Shown here: positions 1 to 25,351 of the stretch, in pieces | How the letters are laid out: each line of letters begins with the position of its first letter | Position numbering within the stretch: position 1 is the stretch's first letter | Assembly: GCA_030268105.1 (NCBI GenBank) | Contig: BSDZ01000019.1 | Location: 1,962,001-2,026,000, forward strand | Direction of reading: 5' to 3' | Length of the DNA: 64,000 nt | Source of the DNA: Volvox africanus | Taxonomy: Eukaryota; Chlorophyta; Chlorophyceae; Chlamydomonadales; Volvocaceae | Notes under the pieces: generated by a model | The model's input: only the letters and a program-made list of their open reading frames with translations | What the model was told of the DNA's origin: nothing | The model's database searches: none | Translations under genes and position numbers: made by a program

Positions 1-467
1 GCACCAAGCCCAGGGTGCGTGGCCAACCTCCAGACCGGGTCTCGAAGACCCGGTTCTTCGGGCAGCAGACACGGTGGCGAATAGGCTGCTGGGGCGGACC
101 CGTATCCGGCCAACCTTCCAGGTCGCCGGCACCCTGATCCACGGGCTGCGTGCGGACGGCTACAGCCCGGCGAATTGGTACGGGCATACCCTGCTGGCGG
201 GAGCCCTCCCGACCAACATCCAGTGTTGGAGCCATCACGATCGATGGGTCTTGGCACATTACGGCGCAGCACCAGGAGTGGCTCCTGTTCCACGGCCTGG
301 GAAACGTACTTTACGTGGCGCTGCAGAAGTGGGCGTATGCCGTTGGTCGCCAGGATGACCCCGGCCTTCTGTGGGCGACCATCAACGCGGTCGAGATGAT
401 GCAGCAGGGCAACACTCTGCCGACCGGCCCGACGGGCTTTGAGCCGGACTGGGGTTCCCTGCGGTGA
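1..467 (+). CDS. 3' end of a further copy of the array candidate coding region
   Basis: The window opens inside a copy of the candidate. The segments around 74-230 and 235-467 correspond to 3748-4141 of the next unit, and the stop codon is at 465-467. It shows that at least part of another unit lies to the left. Confidence 0.3.
34..54. other. Perfect hairpin in the array unit
   Basis: ACCGGGTC and GACCCGGT form an 8-bp perfect inverted repeat around a TCGAA loop. It recurs unchanged at 3708-3728, 7382-7402 and 11057-11077. Its role is unknown. Confidence 0.7.
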
Positions 468-814
468 AGGCGAGGCTGATGGTCATGCATGCTGTCGCCA
501 ATCAAGCAGGTGGACGGGGCGGAGGAATTTGAGCTTCGTGGAACGGCAGGCTGGGAGAGTGGCCGTGTGGGGTCTGGGGGCTGGACGGCTGCTGCATGGA
601 CGACATGTACCGTAATAATGCATGCAATTGCTAATGACGTGGCACGACGCTGCCACTGGCCGCTTCCCGGCATATGACCCAAGACCCATACGCACACCAG
701 ATGGGCGGCGGTGCGGCCCCACAGACACGGCCGGGCTAATACCCGGTAATTGTTGGAGGTTCGAGTAAGGTTGCTCTGATTTCACAGTGTGTGTATTGAC
801 ACGCCACGATTGAC

Positions 815-936
815 ATGTGTACGACGGCATGAGGGGCGTGAGGTCCCGTTTGAGTGTTTGAAATCTGCGCGCGGGTTCTTGTGTCCGTGGTGATGGGATT
901 AAAATGTGTACGACGGCGTCAGCGGCGTGAGGTCCC
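815..936. repeat. Short internal duplication in the array unit
   Basis: About 33 bp at 815-847 (ATGTGTACGACGGC then GGCGTGAGGTCCC) are repeated with few changes at 904-936, an offset of 89 bp. The pair is present in every unit, shifted by the unit period, upstream of the tRNA. No function can be assigned. Confidence 0.7.
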
Positions 937-1307
937 TGCCCTTGCGTTCGCAGTCGTTTGCCTGCTGAACGTCATGAGCCGGCATCATCGCAAACTCGCA
1001 AACTTCAAACCGTTTCATTGTGAAGTAACCGGCCTTTACGGATTGTGGGGGGCCCCGCCCTTTTTCCGGCTTCGAGGAAGCCGATACCCTACTTGTCCTG
1101 CTGCTGCTCATCTGGATTCCTTGTGTGCTGGCTGGGCTGTCAGGCTCGCTTGGTCTGTCCTGGCGCAGATTCGTTGTTCATTGTTCAGCTCAAAGGCCCG
1201 TGCTCTGCCGTTGCTCGCTGGTGTGCAGGTGCGTGCCTGGTTGATGGGACGGCGAAGAGAGATGGGGATGAAGTGGAATGCACAGCGATGAGCGGCGCAA
1301 CTGTTAT

Positions 1308-1381
1308 GCTGGCATAGCTCAGTTGGATAGAGCACCCGTTTAGTAAGCGGGAGGTCTCCAGTTCAACTCTGGATGTCAGCA
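1308..1381 (+). tRNA. tRNA-Thr (anticodon AGU), array unit 1
   Basis: A full cloverleaf can be folded. The 7-bp acceptor stem pairs GCTGGCA with TGTCAGC and has discriminator A. The D arm is GCTC/GAGC. The anticodon stem CCCGT/GCGGG encloses loop TTAGTAA, giving anticodon AGT (Thr, ACU codons). The T arm is TCCAG-TTCAACT-CTGGA. There is no intron and no encoded CCA, as expected of a eukaryotic nuclear tRNA gene. The A box (TAGCTCAGTTGG) and a B box (GTTCAACTC core) are present, so each copy could be transcribed by RNA polymerase III. Confidence 0.93.
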
Positions 1382-1690
1382 CGCCTGGGCATGTGCACGA
1401 GGACCGTGGGCGCTGTTCTGATCGAGAGTAATTCTGATAGAAGTAGCAGGGGAAAGGGACTTGAGGCTGGGATGGACAATCACGCAGAGAGCCACAGGTA
1501 ATGTGCGATGAACTGAACTGAACACCTGCTGCTTGTGTGACCGTGAATACACAGACAGACAGCATGATGACTGCCGCATACAGCACTCCAGATTCAATAC
1601 GATACATATTTACAGCTGGTGTTTCGCTGCAGCAGCCATCTATCAGCAGCGTTGGTGTTAGCCCATTCAGCCAACACCTATGCTTGTGTT

Positions 1691-1808
1691 ACACATATAT
1701 ACAATTATACTCATCTATTCATATACTCATATATACAATTATATACATATATACATATATACATATATATATATATATACGTACATATATATATATACAT
1801 ATATACAT
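1691..1808. repeat. TA-rich microsatellite, unit 1
   Basis: A 118-bp tract of ACATATAT/(TA)n runs 310 bp downstream of the tRNA. The equivalent tracts are 118, 118, 114 and 110 bp in units 1 to 4, and units 1 and 2 have the same length but a different internal order of TATA and CATA steps. It is the most variable part of the unit. Confidence 0.95.
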
Positions 1809-2274
1809 AAACACGCACATGGTAGTAGGCGTTGTGAAGTGAGATTGGGACGGCACACACGATGCCGTGGATGGCGAATAATCCCCACATACACATGTAT
1901 GTGGCTTGGGTGTGCTTTGGAGTCGGGCGCGGCCAGCAGCAGGTATTTGCATTGTGCTTGTGGTGAGCAGCCTTGCTTTCTCTAATTTAAGCCAATTCTC
2001 GGGGTAGAAGAGTTCCACAGTGCCGACATGGAGCTCCATGCTGTGGGGTGAATTGCTGAAGCCGCAGGCATTTCGGAGATACAGCTTAAAGCTTTCCATC
2101 AGTAGTACTGGCGACACTCTAACACTTGACGTCCTCGCCGTTCGCTTTGGAAAGGATGCAGCATTTGCGGTCTGCCGTACTGGCCATCGATGCGGCATGC
2201 ACCCGGGATCCATGCGATTCGCGCGGGCCCGCAGGCGTTGCTGACGATTCCCCTGGTGCGTGTGTGGCAAATAA

Positions 2275-4141
2275 TCCTGAAATTCCTCAGACATAAAAAT
2301 GTGAGCAGGGTTTGCTCGCTCACTGGCGTGGCGCTGAGCGGCCTCACCGTCGCCAAGCTGCAGTTCGTCAGCAGTGCCGTTCGACCAGAGTACGAGCGGC
2401 TGCGCCAGCACACGGCGCCCTTCCGTGCATGGGCAGCAGGCGCGCAGGGAGCGGCTGCAGGCGACCCAGGCCAGGACGCTGCCTGCAGAGGGTGCTGCCG
2501 TACCGCAGGCGGCCCCTGTCGGCACACCGGAGCCGGGTCCTGCAGGCACGCCCGCCGCCCCGCCCAGTCCTGTGACCATCCTGCTGGAAGCGTACGACCG
2601 CCCGCCCTCCACGGAGACTGCCGCCGCGGTCGATGCTGTGCGCCGCTTCTTCCACCACATCCCTCCTCGGCGTCCCGTGACCGACGGCAACACGGCTGGG
2701 GTCAGGCGCCAGGCGGCTGGACCGGTCGACACGGAGGCTGACGCTGACATTTGTGGCCGAGGCGGCAGGGGGCGCGGGAGCAGGGGGCGTGGGGGCAGGG
2801 GGCAGGGGGGCAGTTGGGCAGGGGCCGTGAGGACAGGGGCCGTGGGGACAGGGCAGGTGCGGTGCCCGAGGTGGTCGCGGCCGTGGTGGTTGAGGAGGAG
2901 GGCGCCAGCAGTGGAGCTGGACGCGGCGGGGGTCACCCCGGGCGCGGGCGAGGTGCTGCTGCCCGGGGGCGGCGCGGGCGAGGGCGCGCAGCAGCCCTCG
3001 TATGGGCGGCTGCCCATACAGAGCAGCCTGTGCACGAGACAGCGGCGGCGCAGGCGACGGTCACAGAGGAGACGGTGCAGGCCGGCGACCGAGGTGGCCG
3101 GGGAGGCCGCAGAGGCCGGGGAGGTCGGGGAGGCCACAGTGGTCGCAGCGGTGGCCGCCCTACCGCCGATGGGCAGGCGGGGAATGCCAGACCGGCACCC
3201 TGTGGTGGCCGCAGGCGACCCCTCGAGCCAGAGACGGCCGCCGAAGCTGATGGGGGTGTCAGGCGGACGCGCCAACGCACTGGCGAAGGGGCGGCGGCTC
3301 ATGTCAACGACCATTCGGCGAACCAGGGTGTTGCCGGTGTTGGCGGCACCGTCACTGCGCCACGGCAGGTGCACACGGCAGGAGGGGGCGGGGAGCTGAC
3401 AGAGGCCGGAGGACCACAGGGGATGCACGAGCAGCTCGAGGAGCACCAGGAGCAGGAGCAGCAGCAGCACCGGGAGCAGCGGCACCGGGAGCAGCGGCAC
3501 AGGGGCCAGCGGAACAGGGAGCAGCGGAACAGGGAGCAGCGACACAGGGAGCAGCGACACAGGGAGCAGCAACGGGAGCATCGGGAGCGGAATGCCGCAC
3601 CATCAGGATCTGGGCCGCAACCCGGGGCCCAGACAACGGCGACGGTGGCAGGGCGTACCGGTGTAGCTGGCCCAGCACCAAGCCCAGGGTGCGTGGCCAA
3701 CCTCCAGACCGGGTCTCGAAGACCCGGTTCTTCGGGCAGCAGACACGGTGGCGAATAGGCTGCTGGGGCGGACCCGTATCCGGCCAACCTTCCAGGTCGC
3801 CGGCACCCTGATCCACGGGCTGCGTGCGGACGGCTACAGCCCGGCGAATTGGTACGGGCATACCCTGCTGGCGGGAGCCCTCCCGACCAACATCCAGTGT
3901 TGGAGCCATCACGATCGATGGGTCTTGGCACATTACGGCGCAGCACCAGGAGTGGCTCCTGTTCCACGGCCTGGGAAACGTACTTTACGTGGCGCTGCAG
4001 AAGTGGGCGTATGCCGTTGGTCGCCAGGATGACCCCGGCCTTCTGTGGGCGACCATCAACGCGGTCGAGATGATGCAGCAGGGCAACACTCTGCCGACCG
4101 GCCCGACGGGCTTTGAGCCGGACTGGGGTTCCCTGCGGTGA
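2275..4141 (+). CDS. Candidate coding region of the array unit, frame interrupted (copy 1)
   Basis: I do not recognise this family. The stretch is GC-rich, with codon use like the real genes of the window, but no single frame runs through it. Successive segments in different plus frames look protein-like: about 2275-2480 (a stretch including SLTGVALSGLTVAKLQF), 2480-2800 (Ala/Pro-rich), 2830-3690 (RGG/RGRG-rich, then the REQRH repeats), 3750-3900 (TLIHGLRADGYSPANWYGH) and 3905-4141 (EWLLFHGLGNVLYVALQKW, stop at 4139). RGG boxes are typical of RNA-binding proteins and of Gag-like proteins. The frame changes could be introns or frameshifts; I found no clean splice solution. It may be a decayed mobile-element or host gene. 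Confidence 0.3.
3469..3573. repeat. 15-bp minisatellite inside the array unit (unit 1)
   Basis: About seven imperfect copies of a 15-bp motif (consensus GGGAGCAGCGGCACA) run in tandem. In the plus frame open at 2751-3758 they encode the pentapeptide Arg-Glu-Gln-Arg-His/Asn. Read on the other strand they give a Leu/Pro-rich stretch, which produces a long but probably meaningless minus-strand open frame. Confidence 0.9.
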
Positions 4142-4981
4142 AGGCGAGGCTGATGGTCATGCATGCTGTCGCCAATCAAGCAGGTGGACGGGGCGGAGGA
4201 ATTTGAGCTTCGTGGAACGGCAGGCTGGGAGAGTGGCCGTGTGGGGTCTGGGGGCTGGACGGCTGCTGCATGGACGACATGTACCGTAATAATGCATGCA
4301 ATTGCTAATGACGCGGCACGACGCTGCCACTGGCCGCTTCCCGGCATATGACCCAAGACCCATACGCACACCAGATGGGCGGCGGTGCGGCCCCACAGAC
4401 ACGGCCGGGCTAATACCCGGTAATTGTTGGAGGTTCGAGTAAGGTTGCTCTGATTTCACAGTGTGTGTATTGACACGCCACGATTGACATGTGTACGACG
4501 GCATGAGGGGCGTGAGGTCCCGTTTGAGTGTTTGAAATCTGCGCGCGGGTTCTTGTGTCCGTGGTGATGGGATTAAAATGTGTACGACGGCGTCAGCGGC
4601 GTGAGGTCCCTGCCCTTGCGTTCGCAGTCGTTTGCCTGCTGAACGTCATGAGCCGGCATCATCGCAAACTCGCAAACTTCAAACCGTTTCATTGTGAAGT
4701 AACCGGCCTTTACGGATTGTGGGGGGCCCCGCCCTTTTTCCGGCTTCGAGGAAGCCGATACCCTACTTGTCCTGCTGCTGCTCATCTGGATTCCTTGTGT
4801 GCTGGCTGGGCTGTCAGGCTCGCTTGGTCTGTCCTGGCGCAGATTCGTTGTTCATTGTTCAGCTCAAAGGCCCGTGCTCTGCCGTTGCTCGCTGGTGTGC
4901 AGGTGCGTGCCTGGTTGATGGGACGGCGAAGAGAGATGGGGATGAAGCGCAATGCACAGCGATGAGCGGCGCAACTGTTAT

Positions 4982-5055
4982 GCTGGCATAGCTCAGTTGG
5001 ATAGAGCACCCGTTTAGTAAGCGGGAGGTCTCCAGTTCAACTCTGGATGTCAGCA
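4982..5055 (+). tRNA. tRNA-Thr (anticodon AGU), array unit 2
   Basis: This copy is identical in sequence to the unit 1 gene, 3674 bp upstream. The flank 25-35 bp upstream differs slightly from units 1 and 3 (AAGCGCAATG instead of AAGTGGAATG), but the tRNA itself is unchanged and should fold and function the same way. Confidence 0.93.
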
Positions 5056-5364
5056 CGCCTGGGCATGTGCACGAGGACCGTGGGCGCTGTTCTGATCGAG
5101 AGTAATTCTGATAGAAGTAGCAGGGGAAAGGGACTTGAGGCTGGGATGGACAATCACGCAGAGAGCCACAGGTAATGTGCGATGAACTGAACTGAACACC
5201 TGCTGCTTGTGTGACCGTGAATACACAGACAGACAGCATGATGACTGCCGCATACAGCACTCCAGATTCAATACGATACATATTTACAGCTGGTGTTTCG
5301 CTGCAGCAGCCATCTATCAGCAGCGTTGGTGTTAGCCCATTCAGCCAACACCTATGCTTGTGTT

Positions 5365-5416
5365 ACACATATATACAATTATACTCATCTATTCATATAC
5401 TCATATATACAATTAT

Positions 5417-5447
<31 letters not shown>

Positions 5448-5482
5448 TACGTACATATATATATATATATACATATATACAT
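5365..5482. repeat. TA-rich microsatellite, unit 2
   Basis: This is the unit 2 counterpart of the tract at 1691. It has the same total length but longer uninterrupted (TA)n runs on both sides of the central ACGTAC. Confidence 0.95.
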
Positions 5483-5948
5483 AAACACGCACATGGTAGT
5501 AGGCGTTGTGAAGTGAGATTGGGACGGCACACACGATGCCGTGGATGGCGAATAATCCCCACATACACATGTATGTGGCTTGGGTGTGCTTTGGAGTCGG
5601 GCGCGGCCAGCAGCAGCTATTTGCATTGTGCTTGTGGTGAGCAGCCTTGCTTTCTCTAATTTAAGCCAATTCTCGGGGTAGAAGAGTTCCACAGTGCCGA
5701 CATGGAGCTCCATGCTGTGGGGTGAATTGCTGAAGCCGCAGGCATTTCGGAGATACAGCTTAAAGCTTTCCATCAGTAGTACTGGCGACACTCTAACACT
5801 TGACGTCCTCGCCGTTCGCTTTGGAAAGGATGCAGCATTTGCGGTCTGCCGTACTGGCCATCGATGCGGCATGCACCCGGGATCCATGCGATTCGCGCGG
5901 GCCCGCAGGCGTTGCTGACGATTCCCCTGGTGCGTGTGTGGCAAATAA

Positions 5949-7815
5949 TCCTGAAATTCCTCAGACATAAAAATGTGAGCAGGGTTTGCTCGCTCACTGG
6001 CGTGGCGCTGAGCGGCCTCACCGTCGCCAAGCTGCAGTTCGTCAGCAGTGCCGTTCGACCAGAGTACGAGCGGCTGCGCCAGCACACGGCGCCCTTCCGT
6101 GCATGGGCAGCAGGCGCGCAGGGAGCGGCTGCAGGCGACCCAGGCCAGGACGCTGCCTGCAGAGGGTGCTGCCGTACCGCAGGCGGCCCCTGTCGGCACA
6201 CCGGAGCCGGGTCCTGCAGGCACGCCCGCCGCCCCGCCCAGTCCTGTGACCATCCTGCTGGAAGCGTACGACCGCCCGCCCTCCACGGAGACTGCCGCCG
6301 CGGTCGATGCTGTGCGCCGCTTCTTCCACCACATCCCTCCTCGGCGTCCCGTGACCGACGGCAACACGGCTGGGGTCAGGCGCCAGGCGGCTGGACCGGT
6401 CGACACGGAGGCTGACGCTGACATTTGTGGCCGAGGCGGCAGGGGGCGCGGGAGCAGGGGGCGTGGGGGCAGGGGGCAGGGGGGCAGTTGGGCAGGGGCC
6501 GTGAGGACAGGGGCCGTGGGGACAGGGCAGGTGCGGTGCCCGAGGTGGTCGCGGCCGTGGTGGTTGAGGAGGAGGGCGCCAGCAGTGGAGCTGGACGCGG
6601 CGGGGGTCACCCCGGGCGCGGGCGAGGTGCTGCTGCCCGGGGGCGGCGCGGGCGAGGGCGCGCAGCAGCCCTCGTATGGGCGGCTGCCCATACAGAGCAG
6701 CCTGTGCACGAGACGGCGGCGGCGCAGGCGACGGTCACAGAGGAGACGGTGCAGGCCGGCGACCGAGGTGGCCGGGGAGGCCGCAGAGGCCGGGGAGGTC
6801 GGGGAGGCCACAGTGGTCGCAGCGGTGGCCGCCCTACCGCCGATGGGCAGGCGGGGAATGCCAGACCGGCACCCTGTGGTGGCCGCAGGCGACCCCTCGA
6901 GCCAGAGACGGCCGCCGAAGCTGATGGGGGTGTCAGGCGGACGCGCCAACGCACTGGCGAAGGGGCGGCGGCTCATGTCAACGACCATTCGGCGAACCAG
7001 GGTGTTGCCGGTGTTGGCGGCACCGTCACTGCGCCACGGCAGGTGCACACGGCAGGAGGGGGCGGGGAGCTGACAGAGGCCGGAGGACCACAGGGGATGC
7101 ACGAGCAGCTCGAGGAGCACCAGGAGCAGGAGCAGCAGCAGCACCGGGAGCAGCGGCACCGGGAGCAGCGGCACAGGGGCCAGCGGAACAGGGAGCAGCG
7201 GAACAGGGAGCAGCGACACAGGGAGCAGCGACACAGGGAGCAGCAACGGGAGCATCGGGAGCGGAATGCCGCACCATCAGGATCTGGGCCGCAACCCGGG
7301 GCCCAGACAACGGCGACGGTGGCAGGGCGTACCGGTGTAGCTGGCCCAGCACCAAGCCCAGGGTGCGTGGCCAACCTCCAGACCGGGTCTCGAAGACCCG
7401 GTTCTTCGGGCAGCAGACACGGTGGCGAATAGGCTGCTGGGGCGGACCCGTATCCGGCCAACCTTCCAGGTCGCCGGCACCCTGATCCACGGGCTGCGTG
7501 CGGACGGCTACAGCCCGGCGAATTGGTACGGGCATACCCTGCTGGCGGGAGCCCTCCCGACCAACATCCAGTGTTGGAGCCATCACGATCGATGGGTCTT
7601 GGCACATTACGGCGCAGCACCAGGAGTGGCTCCTGTTCCACGGCCTGGGAAACGTACTTTACGTGGCGCTGCAGAAGTGGGCGTATGCCGTTGGTCGCCA
7701 GGATGACCCCGGCCTTCTGTGGGCGACCATCAACGCGGTCGAGATGATGCAGCAGGGCAACACTCTGCCGACCGGCCCGACGGGCTTTGAGCCGGACTGG
7801 GGTTCCCTGCGGTGA
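5949..7815 (+). CDS. Candidate coding region of the array unit (copy 2)
   Basis: This is the second copy of the candidate at 2275-4141, with the same frame changes at the same places. Shared interruptions mean either that they are introns or that the defect predates amplification of the unit. The function is unknown. Confidence 0.3.
7143..7247. repeat. 15-bp minisatellite inside the array unit (unit 2)
   Basis: This is the unit 2 copy of the minisatellite, with the same number and order of 15-bp repeats as unit 1. The minisatellite is therefore older than the amplification of the unit. Confidence 0.9.
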
Positions 7816-8655
7816 AGGCGAGGCTGATGGTCATGCATGCTGTCGCCAATCAAGCAGGTGGACGGGGCGGAGGAATTTGAGCTTCGTGGAACGGCAGGCT
7901 GGGAGAGTGGCCGTGTGGGGTCTGGGGGCTGGACGGCTGCTGCATGGACGACATGTACCGTAATAATGCATGCAATTGCTAATGACGCGGCACGACGCTG
8001 CCACTGGCCGCTTCCCGGCATATGACCCAAGACCCATACGCACACCAGATGGGCGGCGGTGCGGCCCCACAGACACGGCCGGGCTAATACCCGGTAATTG
8101 TTGGAGGTTCGAGTAAGGTTGCTCTGATTTCACAGTGTGTGTATTGACACGCCACGATTGACATGTGTACGACGGCATGAGGGGCGTGAGGTCCCGTTTG
8201 AGTGTTTGAAATCTGCGCGCGGGTTCTTGTGTCCGTGGTGATGGGATTAAAATGTGTACGACGGCGTCAGCGGCGTGAGGTCCCTGCCCTTGCGTTCGCA
8301 GTCGTTTGCCTGCTGAACGTCATGAGCCGGCATCATCGCAAACTCGCAAACTTCAAACCGTTTCATTGTGAAGTAACCGGCCTTTACGGATTGTGGGGGG
8401 CCCCGCCCTTTTTCCGGCTTCGAGGAAGCCGATACCCTACTTGTCCTGCTGCTGCTCATCTGGATTCCTTGTGTGCTGGCTGGGCTGTCAGGCTCGCTTG
8501 GTCTGTCCTGGCGCAGATTCGTTGTTCATTGTTCAGCTCAAAGGCCCGTGCTCTGCCGTTGCTCGCTGGTGTGCAGGTGCGTGCCTGGTTGATGGGACGG
8601 CGAAGAGAGATGGGGATGAAGTGGAATGCACAGCGATGAGCGGCGCAACTGTTAT

Positions 8656-8729
8656 GCTGGCATAGCTCAGTTGGATAGAGCACCCGTTTAGTAAGCGGGA
8701 GGTCTCCAGTTCAACTCTGGATGTCAGCA
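8656..8729 (+). tRNA. tRNA-Thr (anticodon AGU), array unit 3
   Basis: The third copy is again identical over all 74 nt, including the AGT anticodon and both internal promoter boxes. Substitutions in this unit lie just downstream, around 8751-8761, outside the tRNA. Confidence 0.93.
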
Positions 8730-9043
8730 CGCCTGGGCATGTGCACGAGGTCCGTGGGCCCTGTTCTGATCGAGAGTAATTCTGATAGAAGTAGCAGGGG
8801 AAAGGGACTTGAGGCTGGGATGGACAATCACGCAGAGAGCCACAGGTAATGTGCGATGAACTGAACTGAACACCTGCTGCTTGTGTGACCGTGAATACAC
8901 AGACAGACAGCATGATGACTGCCGCATACAGCACTCCAGATTCAATACGATACTGGTGTTATATACAGCTGGTGTTTCGCTGCAGCAGCCATCTATCAGC
9001 AGCGTTGGTGTTAGCCCATTCAGCCAACACCTATGCTTGTGTT

Positions 9044-9095
9044 ACACATATATACAATTATACTCATCTATTCATATACTCATATATACAATTAT

Positions 9096-9127
<32 letters not shown>

Positions 9128-9157
9128 GTACATATATATATATATACATATATACAT
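9044..9157. repeat. TA-rich microsatellite, unit 3
   Basis: This is the unit 3 counterpart, 4 bp shorter than in units 1 and 2. About 80 bp upstream, this unit alone carries GATACTGGTGTTATATACAG where the others read GATACATATTTACAG. Confidence 0.95.
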
Positions 9158-9623
9158 AAACACGCACATGGTAGTAGGCGTTGTGAAGTGAGATTGGGAC
9201 GGCACACACGATGCCGTGGATGGCGAATAATCCCCACATACACATGTATGTGGCTTGGGTGTGCTTTGGAGTCGGGCGCGGCCAGCAGCAGCTATTTGCA
9301 TTGTGCTTGTGGTGAGCAGCCTTGCTTTCTCTAATTTAAGCCAATTCTCGGGGTAGAAGAGTTCCACAGTGCCGACATGGAGCTCCATGCTGTGGGGTGA
9401 ATTGCTGAAGCCGCAGGCATTTCGGAGATACAGCTTAAAGCTTTCCATCAGTAGTACTGGCGACACTCTAACACTTGACGTCCTCGCCGTTCGCTTTGGA
9501 AAGGATGCAGCATTTGCGGTCTGCCGTACTGGCCATCGATGCGGCATGCACCCGGGATCCATGCGATTCGCGCGGGCCCGCAGGCGTTGCTGACGATTCC
9601 CCTGGTGCGTGTGTGGCAAATAA

Positions 9624-11490
9624 TCCTGAAATTCCTCAGACATAAAAATGTGAGCAGGGTTTGCTCGCTCACTGGCGTGGCGCTGAGCGGCCTCACCGTC
9701 GCCAAGCTGCAGTTCGTCAGCAGTGCCGTTCGACCAGAGTACGAGCGGCTGCGCCAGCACACGGCGCCCTTCCGTGCATGGGCAGCAGGCGCGCAGGGAG
9801 CGGCTGCAGGCGACCCAGGCCAGGACGCTGCCTGCAGAGGGTGCTGCCGTACCGCAGGCGGCCCCTGTCGGCACACCGGAGCCGGGTCCTGCAGGCACGC
9901 CCGCCGCCCCGCCCAGTCCTGTGACCATCCTGCTGGAAGCGTACGACCGCCCGCCCTCCACGGAGACTGCCGCCGCGGTCGATGCTGTGCGCCGCTTCTT
10001 CCACCACATCCCTCCTCGGCGTCCCGTGACCGACGGCAACACGGCTGGGGTCAGGCGCCAGGCGGCTGGACCGGTCGACACGGAGGCTGACGCTGACATT
10101 TGTGGCCGAGGCGGCAGGGGGCGCGGGAGCAGGGGGCGTGGGGGCAGGGGGCAGGGGGGCAGTTGGGCAGGGGCCGTGAGGACAGGGGCCGTGGGGACAG
10201 GGCAGGTGCGGTGCCCGAGGTGGTCGCGGCCGTGGTGGTTGAGGAGGAGGGCGCCAGCAGTGGAGCTGGACGCGGCGGGGGTCACCCCGGGCGCGGGCGA
10301 GGTGCTGCTGCCCGGGGGCGGCGCGGGCGAGGGCGCGCAGCAGCCCTCGTATGGGCGGCTGCCCATACAGAGCAGCCTGTGCACGAGACGGCGGCGGCGC
10401 AGGCGACGGTCACAGAGGAGACGGTGCAGGCCGGCGACCGAGGTGGCCGGGGAGGCCGCAGAGGCCGGGGAGGTCGGGGAGGCCACAGTGGTCGCAGCGG
10501 TGGCCGCCCTACCGCCGATGGGCAGGCGGGGAATGCCAGACCGGCACCCTGTGGTGGCCGCAGGCGACCCCTCGAGCCAGAGACGGCCGCCGAAGCTGAT
10601 GGGGGTGTCAGGCGGACGCGCCAACGCACTGGCGAAGGGGCGGCGGCTCATGTCAACGACCATTCGGCGAACCAGGGTGTTGCCGGTGTTGGCGGCACCG
10701 TCACTGCGCCACGGCAGGTGCACACGGCAGGAGGGGGCGGGGAGCTGACAGAGGCCGGAGGACCACAGGGGATGCACGAGCAGCTCGAGGAGCACCAGGA
10801 GCAGGAGCAGCAGCAGCACCGGGAGCAGCGGCACCGGGAGCAGCGGCACAGGGGCCAGCGGAACAGGGAGCAGCGGAACAGGGAGCAGCGACACAGGGAG
10901 CAGCGACACAGGGAGCAGCAACGGGAGCATCGGGAGCGGAATGCCGCACCATCAGGATCTGGGCCGCAACCCGGGGCCCAGACAACGGCGACGGTGGCAG
11001 GGCGTACCGGTGTAGCTGGCCCAGCACCAAGCCCAGGGTGCGTGGCCAACCTCCAGACCGGGTCTCGAAGACCCGGTTCTTCGGGCAGCAGACACGGTGG
11101 CGAATAGGCTGCTGGGGCGGACCCGTATCCGGCCAACCTTCCAGGTCGCCGGCACCCTGATCCACGGGCTGCGTGCGGACGGCTACAGCCCGGCGAATTG
11201 GTACGGGCATACCCTGCTGGCGGGAGCCCTCCCGACCAACATCCAGTGTTGGAGCCATCACGATCGATGGGTCTTGGCACATTACGGCGCAGCACCAGGA
11301 GTGGCTCCTGTTCCACGGCCTGGGAAACGTACTTTACGTGGCGCTGCAGAAGTGGGCGTATGCCGTTGGTCGCCAGGATGACCCCGGCCTTCTGTGGGCG
11401 ACCATCAACGCGGTCGAGATGATGCAGCAGGGCAACACTCTGCCGACCGGCCCGACGGGCTTTGAGCCGGACTGGGGTTCCCTGCGGTGA
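9624..11490 (+). CDS. Candidate coding region of the array unit (copy 3)
   Basis: This is the third copy, with the same structure as copies 1 and 2 and the stop codon at 11488-11490. It is the last complete copy, because unit 4 ends before the region recurs. Confidence 0.3.
10818..10922. repeat. 15-bp minisatellite inside the array unit (unit 3)
   Basis: This is the unit 3 copy, again with the same repeat count. Unit 4 ends before this part of the unit. Confidence 0.9.
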
Positions 11491-12297
11491 AGGCGAGGCT
11501 GATGGTCATGCATGCTGTCGCCAATCAAGCAGGTGGACGGGGCGGAGGAATTTGAGCTTCGTGGAACGGCAGGCTGGGAGAGTGGCCGTGTGGGGTCTGG
11601 GGGCTGGACGGCTGCTGCATGGACGACATGTACCGTAATAATGCATGCAATTGCTAATGACGCGGCACGACGCTGCCACTGGCCGCTTCCCGGCATATGA
11701 CCCAAGACCCATACGCACACCAGATGGGCGGCGGTGCGGCCCCACAGACACGGCCGGGCTAATACCCGGTAATTGTTGGAGGTTCGAGTAAGGTTGCTCT
11801 GATTTCACAGTGTGTGTATTGACACGCCACGATTGACATGTGTACGACGGCATGAGGGGCGTGAGGTCCCGTTTGAGTGTTTGAAATCTGCGCGCGGGTT
11901 CTTGTGTCCGTGGTGATGGGATTAAAATGTGTACGACGGCGTCAGCGGCGTGAGGTCCCTGCCCTTGCGTTCGCAGTCGTTTGCCTGCTGAACGTCATGA
12001 GCCGGCATCATCGCAAACTCGCAAACTTCAAACCGTTTCATTGTGAAGTAACCGGCCTTTACGGATTGTGGGGGGCCCCGCCCTTTTTCCGGCTTCGAGG
12101 AAGCCGATACCCTACTTGTCCTGCTGCTGCTCATCTGGATTCCTTGTGTGCTGGCTGGGCTGTCAGGCTCGCTTGGTCTGTCCTGGCCCAGATTCGTTGT
12201 TCATTGTTCAGCTCAAAGGCCCGTGCTCTGCCGTTGCTCGCTGGTGTGCAGGTGCGTGCCTGGTTGATGGGACGGCGAAGAGAGATGGGGATGAAGA

Positions 12298-12311
12298 TCT
12301 GGATGTCAGCA
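12298..12311 (+). pseudogene. Remnant of tRNA-Thr in array unit 4 (3' 14 nt only)
   Basis: Relative to unit 1, positions equivalent to 1274-1367 (94 bp) are replaced by a single A. This removes the upstream flank and the first 60 nt of the tRNA. Only the 3' side of the T and acceptor stems (TCTGGATGTCAGCA) remains. Both internal promoter boxes are gone, so this copy cannot make a tRNA. Confidence 0.93.
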
Positions 12312-12620
12312 CGCCTGGGCATGTGCACGAGGACCGTGGGCCCTGTCCTGATCGAGAGTAATTCTGATAGAAGTAGCAGGGGAAAGGGACTTGAGGCTGG
12401 GATGGACAATCACGCAGAGAGCCACAGGTAATGTGCGATGAACTGAACTGAACACCTGCTGCTTGTGTGACCGTGAATACACAGACAGGCAGCATGATGA
12501 CTGCCGCATACAGCACTCCAGATTCAATACGATACATATTTACAGCTGGTGTTTCGCTGCAGCAGCCATCTATCAGCAGCGTTGGTGTTAGCCCATTCAG
12601 CCAACACCTATGCTTGTGTT

Positions 12621-12730
12621 ACACATATATACAAGTATACTCATCTATTCATATACTCATATATACAATTATATACATATATACATATATATATATATAT
12701 ACGTACATATATATATATACATATATACAT
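12621..12730. repeat. TA-rich microsatellite, unit 4
   Basis: This is the unit 4 counterpart and the shortest tract (110 bp). The array sequence ends about 170 bp further on. Confidence 0.95.
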
Positions 12731-12901
12731 AAACACGCACATGGTAGTAGGCGTTGTGAAGTGAGATTGGGACGGCACACACGATGCCGTGGATGGCGAA
12801 TAATCCCCACATACACATGTATGTGGCTTGGGTGTGCTTTGGAGTCGGGCGCGGCCAGCAGCAGCTATTTGCATTGTGCTTGTGGTGGGCAGCCTTGCTT
12901 T

Positions 12902-13956
12902 ATTCCTGCAGCCAAGCATGTATGGTCCTGGTAGGTTGCCATTATCACTTGTGCATACAGCATGTTTGTGTATGTCTTTTCGTATGTGCGTGTGAATGGT
13001 GCGTGTGTGCCTCCGCTGTTACTACTTTCTGCAGGATGTTTAGGATTAGCAGGCAACAGGATGTCTGGCTAATTCAGCATTCTACGTTATGTTTGTATTT
13101 GTGCACATGTATGTGCCAATTGTGTGCTTCTCCAGTGAACGCTGGCTTCCCTATCGCTTCTGCTTGATGTGGGACCTCTGAAAGAAGCAAGCCCTTGCCC
13201 AATACCCTGTACGTGATCCAACATATTACGAACATGATGCATTACATGCTGCGAATTAGCAATATGTCGCCTTGTTGATACATCTTCAATCGCGCAGTTT
13301 AGTTAGGTCCGTTCCTATTGAATGAGCAAACATCTTCAGGACGTAGGGGGTAAGCGATGTTTGCCTTTACAGGAATGGTTACCAAATCCTACTACACCAA
13401 AGCAGTTGTAGGTAATTAGTATAGTGACAGAAGATACCATACCAAAGCTGTACTGGTTGGCATGGTGGCGCGTTCGTTCTTCACGAAATCACAATCCTGC
13501 TCTGAACGACACAAGGGCATTCGTGTTTGAAATTCAACCAAAACGCAACATAAACATGACATAGACACGTGCATGAGAGTCTTATGTAGCGTTATACTCG
13601 AGCATAGCTTATGGACCTTATATTTTTGCCTTCCTTATCAATAGCTAACAACGCCTGAATGGAATGCGCCGCTTAGATCAGCATTGTCCTCCAAAACCCT
13701 GCATGCCGTGGGATAACAATCGTCTTCGTTCTGCAAAAAGGCAATCTCAGCCCCCAGAACTTACGTGCAAGTTATATCCACACAGCTAAAGCAGTGTCTC
13801 AATAAAGTGCCACCGGATTACGTGTCTGCGTGAGCCACAGCCTGATTGAAGGCGAAGTCCCAAAATTTCCGTTTTCAGTAATCTTCCATCCATTTATCCG
13901 CACTAGCAGAGCCCGCATCGCACATGATACTAGTACCTGGCTACCTCTTGTAGTCC
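12902..13956. other. Spacer between the array and the CSK gene
   Basis: This is unique sequence with no recognisable gene on either strand. It begins exactly where similarity to the array unit ends. I see no target-site duplication, terminal repeat or tRNA at the junction. Part of it may be the 3' untranslated region of the minus-strand gene ending at 13957. Confidence 0.6.
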
Positions 13957-18405: not shown

Positions 18406-20253
<1,848 letters not shown>

Positions 20254-20646: not shown

Positions 20647-23600
20647 TCAGGGGAATGCAACCGGCATAAAATAGCTCGGCAGCAGCGTTGCCCTACAGCG
20701 TTGCCCTGCCGCCAACGACAGTCGCATTACCGCGCCAGGCGGCACCTTACGGCTACTGTTGTAATGCCCTGGCATAAGTAGCCGTGCCAGCAATTCAACA
20801 CCGTCAACCAGCCGTGGCCCTGGCCGCACGCAGTAAGTCGACTGCATCAGGTATACCTGGCTATCGCGCACCGCCGGAAGGCACCACCAGCCCGGTTGGG
20901 TCGCCAGCGCCGCAAGTCTATCCTGCATAACGCTGGGGGACCCATGGGTGGCTCCGCGTCTGCCTCCGGAACCACCCTGCGAGGTGAGGATGATGAGGAC
21001 GTCGGGAGCGGCCCGCTCACGTATGTCATGCCAGCTAAGCACCACATCAGTGCCGCCCGGCTGTGCCAGGCAGGACGTGGCGCCGGCCAATGCCAGCATC
21101 TCTGGTACCCACCTGCGTACGTGGGACGCGGGAAGCCCGGGTCAACACAAACTTTCAGCTCATACAAACCAAAAGGCCAAGCCAGCGATGCCAAGGCAAA
21201 ACCGTTCTTTTCCCAGTCGACTCTCGTCCAAAGCTAGCTACACTAAAAATAAGATACACGCAGTAGGCCATCAGATTGTTGAGAGGTTGCATTCCCGGAC
21301 ATTGGGGCCCGAACATTAAGCAGCTCGCTTGCAGACCATTTTCCAAGCAAGTATCCCTCACGCCCAGTCCTCACCTGCCCGGCTCAACCAGCGGCTGCAG
21401 AGATTGCAGTATCAGAACTCGGGGGCGCTTAGGGGCTGGGGTAGCTATCGGTGCAGCGCCGGCCATAGGCGAGGCAGAGGGAAGTAGCCGTGAGAGAGGT
21501 CCCCCCATTGCAGCGGCGGCCACTACGCGGCGGATCCTCGACTGCAGCCTCTCCAGCAACATCAATGCTGCCTGCGTCTCATGCACTGCCGCCCCTAGCT
21601 CTAGGATTAGGTCCATGACGTCCACAAGCGTACAACAGTTTGCGTGCATCAAGCAACAGGGGCTGCTGGATCCGCCACTCAAGTTCAGCAGGCCCGTCTC
21701 GACAAGGCCCTGGTAAGCAGTTTTGAAGACGGACGGACAGGAAATCAGCTAGTTTCAGGCTGCCAATGTTCAAGACAGCCGGCTACCGCTCCGATGGAGC
21801 CGATGACCTTAGCTTCAACGCTTACCAGGAGGAAGCACACGCACGAACCATCCCTTACTCATCCCTTTCCCTAACCACCTGTTCCAGCTGCGCCAGCTCC
21901 CCATCTCGTAGCTCTGCCGAGTCCGGAAGCACAAGGACTCCGGGTGACTGCCGCCGCAGCTCCAGCTCGTCCACGATTAGCGCCCGGCCGCCCCGTACCG
22001 TGCAACGTTCCACGGATGTCCGCCCACCACCGCAGAGGCCGCCGCTGCCCCCGCTGCTGAGGACTAGGGACACTGCTCCGCCGGCCGGCCCCGTCGCGTT
22101 TCCATGTGCCCCAGGCATTACGACCCGAATGCCACGTGCGGCCGCACCCTGCGGCGCCTCCTCCTGCGGAACCCAGTTCAGAACTACGCGACGGCTAGTG
22201 CACACATCGGCCGGGTGGTCGCAATCTGAGCCGATTCCGGTCAGCCTGTTCACGAGGCCCATCGCCACTAGCGCTTCACATGCTCCGGGCGCACAGCACA
22301 CCACGCCACCGTTAACGGTCGCATGCGCGGCACCCAGTGTCCCCACCAGAATTTGGGGGCCATGGTGCGGCCCTGGGGCCACAATACCGGGTAACCAGCC
22401 CTGAGCGGTGCTCATGCCAGCGGACGCTCCCACCGTCTTAATGTTGGGGGCCTGGCGCGCGGCCGCGTAATCAAAGCCAAAGGATGGTCCAATTATGGAC
22501 ACTTGTTCCCCTGGTCGGCTGTTGTAATGGTAATGCTGGTGGCGCAGATCCGTCAGACTGCAGCTTGAGCCCACCGGGGCGTATCTTGTGACTGAGCCCG
22601 CGATGATAATAGGGTTCATTATGCCTGCTGGCAGCTCCTCTGACGTGTTGGAGGGCGCACAATATACTTCGCGCTGCGCGGCTATACACTTCTGGGCGCC
22701 ACCACACACACACACTTCCGCGCACATGTTCTCATCCACTCGTACATGCGAGCTGGAATCCAAAGATACCGCGCTCACCAGTGCTTCGTGGTCTTTACCT
22801 GTGATGCCAAATTCACACGGCACAGCGTCCTGGCCGGCAGATGCTGAGGCAGTAGCGTAGGACAAAGTTGTCATCCCCCTGCCACAAGGCTGCAACCAGT
22901 CAACTTTATTTTGTCGCATCTCCTGTTGCACCGACAAAGGGTCATCCTGGAGAAATACTTGTGATTCCGTCGTAGCGCAGTCCTGCCGTCCTGCCGGTGC
23001 AAGGGCCGAGTGGTGCTTTTCAACCAGCGTATGGCCGTGTAGATTTGGGTTGCGGCTGGTCATGTAACCATGGCCGGTGTCGTTCAAGGCCCCTACGGTC
23101 ACGCGGCCTTCCTGGCGGCTAAGGGGCTGGGGCGCCGGATCCAGGAGCGAAGCTCCGGTGGCACTGTTACTTTGGGACAAGGTCGAAGGTGTTCGTCCGG
23201 TAATCGTGCATATCCCAGCACATTCATTTCCGATACATGCGGCACTCTGGGGATAGCCCGTGGAACACGAACCCCGAGACGGGTTGACGTGGTCGTGGCA
23301 TTGGTGCTGTTGCTGTTGTTGGTGCATCTGACCATGCAGCTGTTGCTGTTGTTGTTGATTTGTGTTGGGGTGAGCGCTATATCCCGCAAGGCCCACCAGC
23401 ATTCCACACGAGCTGCCGGCGCTGATGCTGCCGTTGCTGGCGTAGGTCGCCGCCAGAGCCGACACGTCCTGTATGCTTTGGCGCCGCGACCCCACGCAAT
23501 TGCACGCAGTGGCGGCCAGCATTGAATGGTAGTGCATCTTACCAACTGTGGAGGCGGTCGCCGCCGCTGTAATTGAGCCGCCCAGGTGCTGCGCCATGCT

Positions 23601-25351
23601 TGTTGCCAACACTGCCGGATCTAGACAGGCACAGCGGTGAAGTAAGTGTCCTACCATACCAGGATCCGACGGGAAGAACAGGAGGCAGCTGCTCGCCAAA
23701 ACGTTATGCAGTGTGTAGCCCTCGGCCGAGGGCAGCGGCGCAGGAGCTCCACCGTCCCCTCCCAGCTCGTGTGCGGCACATGACTGCGGGAGCTGCTGTA
23801 CCACGGTGACCTCGTACGTCGTACTGAGACGCTGGCTGGTAACTTCGGCATTGCTGACCGCGGACTGCTGACCGCGGACAAAGATGTGCAGCTGGCGCTC
23901 CTCCACCATAACGATGCTCGCCTGAGCGCTCAGATAACCGCGCAGTCGGCTACCCGCGGGCATAAGCGGGTTCCCGGTCGTCACAAGTACGTCCACTGAT
24001 GCGGTTTGCGGCTCTACCAGCAGGCGCGTCTTGAAGGGCAGCACGCCCGCTGCAGGAAGACATGCAGGAAGGTAATCAGGCATACGCATATGCATGCAGG
24101 GACGACCACGCATTCGTAGCTAGGAACAAAGCAGTGGCCTTGCCGCACAGGCCCAAAAGTCCTAACCGGGCACACACATGGAAGATACCCGCGCGTCATC
24201 CCCGGCCTCACCCATATCGTGCACGCATTTTGTGTTCCCGTCCCCATCTTCGTCGAGATCCACTGTTCGCGCGAGGTACAAAATTCCAGCACCCTCTGCA
24301 AGCACTAAGCCTCCCGCCTCGCAGAATGCCCGAACGGCCGTCAGCAAGGGTTTGTTAGCTGCCAGTTGCTGCCAGCGCTCCGGCTCCAAGGGACCGCTGG
24401 ACAAGTACAGACATGTAGCTCCAGCCGGCAAGGCTGTATCGTAAAGAGGCGAGAAAAACAGCAAGGTAGCCCCACTCTGGTGCAGGAGTGTCAGGTTTTC
24501 ATGGAAGCAAGGGCCGAAAGCATCGTCTCGCGCAATTGCTATGCGCACACCTCCAGAGGCCGATAACAGCATTGGCATCGCTGTTATAGGGGAAAGTGTC
24601 TCCGCAAGTTGCTGCAAAGCCTGCACTGCAGCATGAGGAGCTTGCACCGTGCGGGTCGCCAAAACGGTGGGTTTTCGAGCAAGGGCGCACAACCCTGCGC
24701 CCTCAAGCGCCTTATGCGTCACCGACAAAGTGAGGCTCGGAGAGGCATCCACGAGGAGGAGGCCCCTGACGCTGCCGCCATCTATCAGGCGAGGAAGCAG
24801 CACAGAGCACGCCTGGACAATATCCTGAGGCACTTGAGGTTGCCATACCAGAAGGACAACGCCTGAACGTGGGAGGGTCTGTGAGCAAGTCTCCAACGAA
24901 ATTAGCAGGAGGCCCTCGCCGCTGAAGTACTGTGCTAGATGAGACTCCAGAGTTGTGCCTGGGCCTAGCAGGTACGCGTCCACGTTGCACGCGCTGCTAT
25001 TTTGTCGGCGGCCAAGGTCACCTACAGAGTCAAAGATTATAAAAAGCTTTGCAATGCTCTTAAGGGAACTGTGCCAGAGACTTCGCCTCAAGTTTTGCAT
25101 CGTCTGCTGCAAGCACCACCTAACCCCAACGCACCTGCTCCAAACCAAGCTGTGACATGTCTCACGGATGCTACAGAGTTCCTGCAGGGCCGCAGATTAG
25201 GTTTTGCGCTTCCTTACTCCGACCGAAGAGTCATTAAGGTTTTGGCAAGACCGCGACGGTAGCTTTTGGTATGTATTACTTACTGCAGTGAGGCTGCCCA
25301 TTTTGCCACAGCATTTGCAGGTTTCGTGGAAGCAAGGAAGACTGCACGCAT
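20647..25351 (-). CDS. CbiA/CobB-like pseudoenzyme fused to a BtuF/TroA-like binding-protein domain, 6 exons, ~1313 aa
   Basis: Proposed exons: 25284-25351, 25135-25181, 24167-25021, 21879-24049, 21375-21709, 20647-21112; phases agree throughout. Residues 1-400 follow cobyrinic acid a,c-diamide synthase (CbiA/CobB). The strand that carries the P-loop is RAVFLASTKPANAV, the amide-transfer core is RIAIARDDAFGPCFHENL near 190, and AEGAGILYL near 281 stands where the family has AECGGLMYL. Both the GxGKTT P-loop and the nucleophilic Cys are therefore missing. About 480 residues of Gln/His/Ser/Gly-rich linker follow. Residues ~905-1313 match a class III periplasmic-binding domain of the BtuF type (CAPGACEALVAMGL, LLPDSAEL-like segment, RPRVLILQSL, YCVRPGPRLVDGVELLARLL). 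In bacteria these domains make and bind corrinoids. No eukaryote is known to synthesise cobalamin, so a binding or regulatory role is more likely than synthesis. It has no obvious membrane segment. Confidence 0.8.

What the first reader, a model, noticed from the sequence alone, without database searches (positions are those of the whole stretch)
20647..25351. CbiA-like pseudoenzyme fused to a BtuF-like binding domain in a eukaryote
The spliced protein joins a cobyrinate a,c-diamide synthase fold to a corrinoid/siderophore-type periplasmic-binding domain through a long Gln/His/Ser-rich linker. Direct reading shows the P-loop replaced (ASTKPANAVAKWA where the family has AGTxSGxGKTTxA) and the amidotransferase Cys replaced by Gly (AEGAGILYL). 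Eukaryotes are not known to make cobalamin, while many green algae take it up or use it. A catalytically dead synthase fold tied to a ligand-binding domain suggests a corrinoid or tetrapyrrole sensor, carrier or scavenging factor. I am not aware of a described function for such a fusion.
Basis: partly seen in the sequence, partly recalled or inferred. Interest (0 to 1): 0.8.

Follow-up and report, generated by a model that had tools for sequence, protein, structure and literature searches.

The report
Dead B12-enzyme fold fused to BtuF
A Volvox gene joins a B12-pathway enzyme that has lost its catalytic residues to a domain shaped like bacterial vitamin B12 and heme binding proteins; relatives in other algae, a moss and a dinoflagellate still look like working enzymes, although eukaryotes are not known to make B12.

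Summary
The minus-strand gene 25351-20647 has six exons and encodes 1298 aa, identical to Volvox africanus VaNZ11_007703. It joins a CobB/CbiA-type amidotransferase half to a BtuF-like (PF01497) half through a ~415-aa fast-evolving linker.

All nine rows from the Chlamydomonas-Volvox group have Gly for the catalytic Cys; the triad His and P-loop are gone too. The dead amidotransferase domain is nevertheless among the best-kept parts: a retained pseudoenzyme, not a relic.

Both halves are monophyletic in the sampled eukaryotes. Mesotaenium, the moss Ceratodon, Prototheca, Prorocentrum and one unnamed source keep Cys and His and score above NCBI's cobyrinate a,c-diamide synthase cut-off. Two transcriptome forms show partial decay.

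Best reading: an old cytosolic tetrapyrrole-handling (most likely corrinoid) enzyme-plus-binder that became a pure binder or sensor in this lineage. This genome has METH and no METE match, so it should need B12. Against a B12 ligand: mosses are reported to lack B12 metabolism, and the BtuF-like fold matches heme and siderophore binders equally well. The ligand is untested.

The parts
20647..25351 (-). whole gene, six exons: 25351-25284, 25181-25135, 25021-24212, 24049-21879, 21709-21375, 21112-20647 (stop included); 1298 aa
   Evidence: exact spliced match to VaNZ11_007703, GT-AG introns
24567..25351 (-). residues 1-190, eroded ATPase-like segment (three exons, two introns in between)
   Evidence: position ahead of the GATase domain; not recognisable alone by profile comparison; residues 123-190 align with P0010 by BLASTP
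25295..25333 (-). ASTKPANAVAKWA, where intact relatives have the P-loop (e.g. GTxSGVGKT)
   Evidence: P-loop absent in 8 of 8 rows of the group with a usable N-terminus
23934..24545 (-). GATase_3-type domain, about residues 191-347 (one intron inside)
24291..24293 (-). Gly282 codon (GGT) at the nucleophilic Cys position
   Evidence: Gly in 9 of 9 rows of the group and in P0010, Ala in P0013, Cys in P0014-P0019
23673..23696 (-). ASSCLLFF (427-434), where intact relatives have ASxxHLHF/W with the triad His
22320..23564 (-). linker, residues 471-885, with Gln/His runs; fast evolving
   Evidence: 37% identity to V. carteri; 7% of positions identical in at least 6 of 7 rows
23463..23492 (-). GSRRQSIQDV (495-504), the only linker stretch of 5 or more positions identical in at least 6 of 7 rows
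   Evidence: RRxS resembles a basophilic kinase site (recalled, untested)
20647..22319 (-). BtuF-like class III binding half, residues 886-1298 (three exons)
20794..20826 (-). RPGPRLVDGVE motif (1240-1250) of the BtuF-like half
   Evidence: aligned with NRPTPRTLDAVE of V. cholerae BtuF

Best explanation
[quoted passage not shown] Supported here: the fusion is ancient, relatives outside the group keep the catalytic residues, and in this lineage the amidotransferase Cys, the triad His, the GGGYPE loop and the P-loop were lost, after which the sequence became conserved again. Inferred: the protein is cytosolic (in the model residues 2-7 already form the first strand, leaving no room for a targeting peptide). 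The BtuF-like clamshell captures a tetrapyrrole, most likely a corrinoid. The dead CbiA half no longer amidates but still holds or senses that ligand, or closes on the clamshell, so the protein acts as a cytosolic corrinoid carrier or sensor in an alga that depends on B12-dependent methionine synthase. The one conserved linker island may be a phospho-switch.
Confidence: 0.45

Rival explanations
1. Same architecture, other ligand: the ancestral enzyme amidates a non-corrinoid tetrapyrrole that plants and algae make themselves (sirohydrochlorin, siroheme or another) and the BtuF-like half binds it; the Volvox form is then a binder of that compound.
For: Intact-looking enzyme half in a moss (P0016: Cys, His, 306 bits) although mosses are reported to have lost B12-dependent metabolism and CBA1 (PMC11439496, passages). 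Heme-binding proteins are as near in fold as BtuF. CbiA-type enzymes acting on other tetrapyrroles are known: CfbB on Ni-sirohydrochlorin (NCBIfam model); siroheme amidation by DsrN (recalled, only paper listings seen).
Against: No eukaryotic row reaches the CfbB cut-off of 560 bits (best 404.5, P0018), while five exceed the cobyrinate model. BtuF is the best sequence match among solved structures.
Confidence: 0.27
2. The Chlamydomonas-Volvox form has left tetrapyrroles altogether and is a protein scaffold or regulator whose two folded halves bind proteins and whose linker is phosphorylated.
For: Loss of the ATP and glutamine chemistry; erosion of the ATPase segment beyond recognition; one conserved RRxS-type linker island.
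Against: The BtuF-like half keeps its motifs (RPGPRLVDGVE, GRWVPEM) and a confident clamshell model, which a mere scaffold would not need.
Confidence: 0.15
3. A decaying relic without function.
For: Several catalytic motifs lost; long stem branch of the N half.
Against: Open in 9 rows from eight species, dead domain 71-79% identical from V. africanus to the more distant species while the linker is 18-37% (P0004, P0005, P0006, P0008, P0009), single copy retained.
Confidence: 0.05
4. Gene-model or assembly artefact: two neighbouring genes wrongly joined.
For: The Tetrabaena model P0007 is itself a chimera with a ClpP gene, so such errors occur.
Against: Same fusion in separate assemblies, some on megabase contigs (moss contig 18.3 Mb), and across single MMETSP transcripts that hold both halves in part (P0010, P0013); GT-AG introns.
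Confidence: 0.02

Closest known systems
[quoted passage not shown] Pfam PF01656 + PF07685)
   Same: GATase_3 domain recognised; intact relatives in other eukaryotes exceed the curated cut-off (P0015-P0019, 306-480 bits against 254)
   Different: the Volvox protein scores 86.5 bits, lacks Cys, His and P-loop, and carries a linker and a BtuF-like half
BtuF and other class III substrate-binding proteins (Pfam PF01497)
   Different: part of a large fusion with no evident signal peptide; ligand unknown; heme and siderophore binders match equally well
CBA1, the algal B12 uptake protein (PMC10828217, passages seen)
   Same: BtuF-like structure in green algae, there linked to B12 uptake
   Different: CBA1 is described with a signal peptide, one C-terminal membrane helix and ER/membrane location, and without a CbiA half; its sequence was not compared here
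Bifunctional CobBC (NF053748)
   Same: CbiA fused to another B12-pathway domain (P0011, 1182 bits, cut-off 950)
   Different: the partner is an aminotransferase, not a binding protein. In the plasmid collection 0 of 244 records with a match to the moss fusion hold 80% or more of it
CobB-like protein of Chrysochromulina brevifilum (PMC4057078, passages)
   Same: earlier sighting of a cobyrinate a,c-diamide synthase-like protein in an alga
   Different: one sentence in a transcriptome survey; no fusion or residue analysis in the passages seen

Membership tests
CbiA/CobB cobyrinate a,c-diamide synthase | score above the curated cut-off of PRK01077 (254 bits) | tested here: not met
   Volvox protein 86.5 bits; relatives P0015 480, P0016 306, P0017 429, P0018 436, P0019 440 met; P0010 252 and P0014 235 just below
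CbiA/CobB cobyrinate a,c-diamide synthase | GATase_3 fold | tested here: met
CbiA/CobB cobyrinate a,c-diamide synthase | nucleophilic Cys of the amidotransferase | tested here: not met
   Gly282; Gly in 9 of 9 rows of the group
CbiA/CobB cobyrinate a,c-diamide synthase | triad His (ASxxHLHF) | tested here: not met
   ASSCLLFF and variants
CbiA/CobB cobyrinate a,c-diamide synthase | P-loop GxxSGxGKT of the ATPase domain | tested here: not met
   absent in 8 of 8 rows of the group with a usable N-terminus; the domain itself is not recognisable
CbiA/CobB cobyrinate a,c-diamide synthase | amidation of cobyrinate a and c side chains | not testable with these tools
   needs an enzyme assay
CfbB Ni-sirohydrochlorin a,c-diamide synthase | score above cut-off 560 bits | tested here: not met
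   63.4 bits for the Volvox protein; best eukaryotic row 404.5, P0018
Class III substrate-binding protein (Peripla_BP_2) | PF01497 above cut-off and class III fold | tested here: met
BtuF vitamin B12-binding protein | NCBI equivalog model PRK03379 | tested here: not met
   no match at E <= 0.01 in any of 10 rows
BtuF vitamin B12-binding protein | B12 binding | not testable with these tools
   needs a binding assay
BtuF vitamin B12-binding protein | signal peptide and periplasmic or lipoprotein location | not tested
   no predictor at hand; the fusion begins with residues that form strand 1 of the N domain
CBA1 | homology to Chlamydomonas Cre02.g081050 | not tested
   CBA1 sequence not fetched; described features differ

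The most novel reading that the evidence does not exclude
Eukaryotes own an undescribed tetrapyrrole a,c-diamide synthase physically coupled to its own BtuF-like capture domain. It is active in charophytes, mosses, trebouxiophytes and dinoflagellates (finishing or repairing scavenged incomplete corrinoids, or amidating a home-made tetrapyrrole), and it was turned into a pseudoenzyme corrinoid/tetrapyrrole sensor in Chlamydomonas and Volvox.
Probability: 0.35. Interest if true: 0.82.

Novelty: new variant of a known kind. Interest (0 to 1): 0.63.

Why it matters
Eukaryotes are not known to make B12 (standard knowledge), yet a charophyte, a moss, a trebouxiophyte and a dinoflagellate carry what a curated model would name a cobyrinate a,c-diamide synthase, fused to a B12/heme-type binding domain. 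Finding its substrate would reveal either a eukaryotic corrinoid-finishing step or an unknown amidated tetrapyrrole in plants. The green-algal branch gives a graded series (intact; Cys lost; Cys, His and ATP site lost) for how an enzyme becomes a pseudoenzyme. Chlamydomonas reinhardtii, a tractable model for B12 uptake, carries a homologue (P0012), so the question can be tested directly.

Tried and rejected
First gene model of 1315 aa had the wrong second exon; replaced by the exact spliced match. The 93% identity shown for P0001 comes from that error.

The other GATase_3 match in this genome (C77, L001) looks like a PdxT-type glutaminase by eye, not a CbiA (not tested with a model).

A first HHalign run seemed to show the N segment of the group as CbiA (97.5%), but two rows shared a name, one was dropped, and the intact P0010 slipped into the set. 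With the set corrected the probability is 1.5%, within shuffles. I therefore do not claim detectable ATPase homology for residues 1-122.

Whether bacteria carry the same fusion: none seen in plasmids (0 of 244 records with a match hold 80% or more of the moss protein), and a BtuF-half profile over the 15 prokaryotic loci then held found one weak hit. Chromosomes at large were not searched for the fusion. Trees sample 24 and 5 prokaryote rows, chosen by my own searches, so no donor is named.

Ligand from gene neighbourhood: four annotated plasmid neighbourhoods of BtuF-like genes have no B12 genes (one search has no annotation); one haloarchaeal cbiA lies beside a substrate-binding protein gene. 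Inconclusive.

The fold of the N-terminal segment was barely tested by VIA-align: inconclusive.

Distribution in eukaryotes is a lower bound: the three protein searches scored capped candidate sets, so absence from a lineage cannot be read from them.

Papers: searches listed no paper that describes this fusion in title or abstract start; PMC4057078 mentions one CobB-like algal protein. Passages only were read of PMC11439496, PMC10828217, PMC4057078 and PMC8123684; all other papers were seen as listings.
Full report
What is there. The minus-strand gene spans exactly the reported coordinates. Spliced alignment gives six exons and 1298 codons identical to VaNZ11_007703 of Volvox africanus, so the window is from that species or a near-identical strain; it is part of a 141-Mb, 126-contig assembly. 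The protein has a CobB/CobQ-type amidotransferase domain (41.3 bits, cut-off 27) and a Peripla_BP_2 domain (28.4 bits, cut-off 27.5), separated by about 415 residues of linker. Neighbours are ClpP-matching reading frames on the same strand at 18.4-18.9 kb and a Sec1-family gene on the plus strand from 25.7 kb. The Tetrabaena model P0007 fuses this gene to a ClpP, which fits the same gene order there.

Is the loss real? All nine rows of the Chlamydomonas-Volvox group (P0001-P0009; eight named species; P0001 is the window's own protein) have Gly at the nucleophile position. The His-containing ASxxHLHF motif and the GGGYPE loop are changed in the rows aligned. The P-loop is absent in the eight rows with a usable N-terminus; the V. 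carteri model P0004 has an aberrant start. These are shared states, not sequencing errors. Caution: residues 1-190 as such cannot be recognised as an ATPase domain by profile comparison (1.5%, shuffles up to 3.1%), and BLASTP to the intact relative P0010 begins at residue 123. The GATase half (99.9%) and the BtuF half (99.7%) are recognised without doubt. An earlier run was flawed and is discarded.

Is it still used? Between V. africanus and V. carteri identity is 79% in the dead GATase domain, 72% in the BtuF half, 66% in residues 1-190, 55% in the GATase tail and 37% in the linker. The GATase domain is first in six of eight comparisons with P0001; residues 1-190 are ahead in P0003 (90 against 88%) and level in P0006. 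Over seven rows, 69% of GATase positions are identical in at least six, against 59% of BtuF, 54% of residues 1-190, 33% of the tail and 7% of the linker. A relic would not keep its dead domain so well. The N half has a long stem (1.81 changes per column; BtuF half 0.67) and then short tips (0.15-0.26; BtuF half 0.12-0.19): a burst of change followed by renewed constraint. dN/dS could not be computed because no algal coding DNA other than the window is held.

How old is it? A search with the BtuF half (18 proteins of 7986 scored candidates) found the same architecture, or parts of it, in Chlamydomonas reinhardtii (P0012, N-terminally incomplete), an MMETSP transcriptome (P0013), unnamed JGI and other sources (P0014, P0018), Mesotaenium (P0015, whose BtuF middle is missing in the gene model), the moss Ceratodon purpureus (P0016, contig 18.3 Mb, N-terminus missing in the model), the dinoflagellate Prorocentrum (P0017) and Prototheca (P0019); a second MMETSP form (P0010) came. 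P0017 and P0018 add Kelch repeats and DUF5522; P0020 is BtuF plus Kelch. Cys and His are intact in P0014-P0019 (6 of 6); the P-loop is intact in P0010, P0014, P0015, P0017, P0018 and P0019. Against NCBI's cobyrinate a,c-diamide synthase model (cut-off 254 bits) P0015, P0016, P0017, P0018 and P0019 score 480, 306, 429, 436 and 440, P0010 252 and P0014 235; the Volvox protein 86.5. Trees put the eukaryotic rows on one side of a branch in both halves (99/97 and 98/96), with 24 and 5 prokaryotic rows; that sampling is small and biased to what my searches returned. Decay looks graded: Cys changed with His kept (P0013; P-loop not covered), Cys and His changed with P-loop kept (P0010), then all of these (Chlamydomonas-Volvox group). 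Green-lineage rows with a complete C-terminus share a tail around GQRC that the dinoflagellate row lacks and P0018 shows at most a trace of.

Mechanism. Shown or well supported: fusion, ancient origin, loss of catalytic residues, later constraint. Inferred: cytosolic location, tetrapyrrole binding, corrinoid as the likely ligand, carrier or sensor role, possible phospho-switch at GSRRQSIQDV. The strongest objection is the moss. PMC11439496 (passages) reports loss of B12-dependent metabolism in mosses and no CBA1 there, yet Ceratodon keeps an intact-looking enzyme half. Either mosses do something with corrinoids, or the substrate is another tetrapyrrole. I keep the corrinoid reading first (0.45) and the other-tetrapyrrole reading second (0.27).

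Relation to known things. It works like a BtuF-type binder tied to a CbiA fold. It is not a CbiA/CobB by membership (four defining features tested and not met, one met). It is a class III binding-protein domain by fold and Pfam, but not shown to be a BtuF. CBA1 (PMC10828217, passages) is a different, described algal B12 protein with a signal peptide and a membrane helix. The only earlier mention of an algal CobB-like protein I found is one sentence in PMC4057078. Ten paper searches listed no description of the fusion; the library holds open-licence papers only, and one search listed 10 of 109 and 10 of 19 matching papers.

Noticed in passing
window 1-12965: Tandem array of a ~3,674-bp unit, copies starting at 1, 3675, 7349 and 11024, 99.6-99.8% identical over most of their length; the first three each hold a tRNA-Thr (AGT) gene at 1308, 4982 and 8656, and the fourth, diverging copy lacks that stretch. 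A 15-nt-period stretch recurs in the unit.
   Followed up: partly
P0017, P0018, P0020: Dinoflagellate and unnamed homologues carry C-terminal Kelch repeats, two of them also DUF5522; one (P0020) is BtuF-like plus Kelch without the CbiA half.
   Followed up: no
window 18406-18889 (-): ClpP-matching reading frames lie downstream on the same strand; a Tetrabaena gene model merges the homologous gene with ClpP, which suggests kept gene order and a mis-merged public model.
   Followed up: partly
P0004 (Volvox carteri VOLCADRAFT_107975): The public V. carteri model has an N-terminus unlike that of all other rows of the group, probably a wrong first exon.
   Followed up: no
L027 3989-4924: In Alicyclobacillus dauci a BtuF-like gene related to the eukaryotic binding half directly follows ribonucleotide reductase genes on a plasmid.
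   Followed up: no
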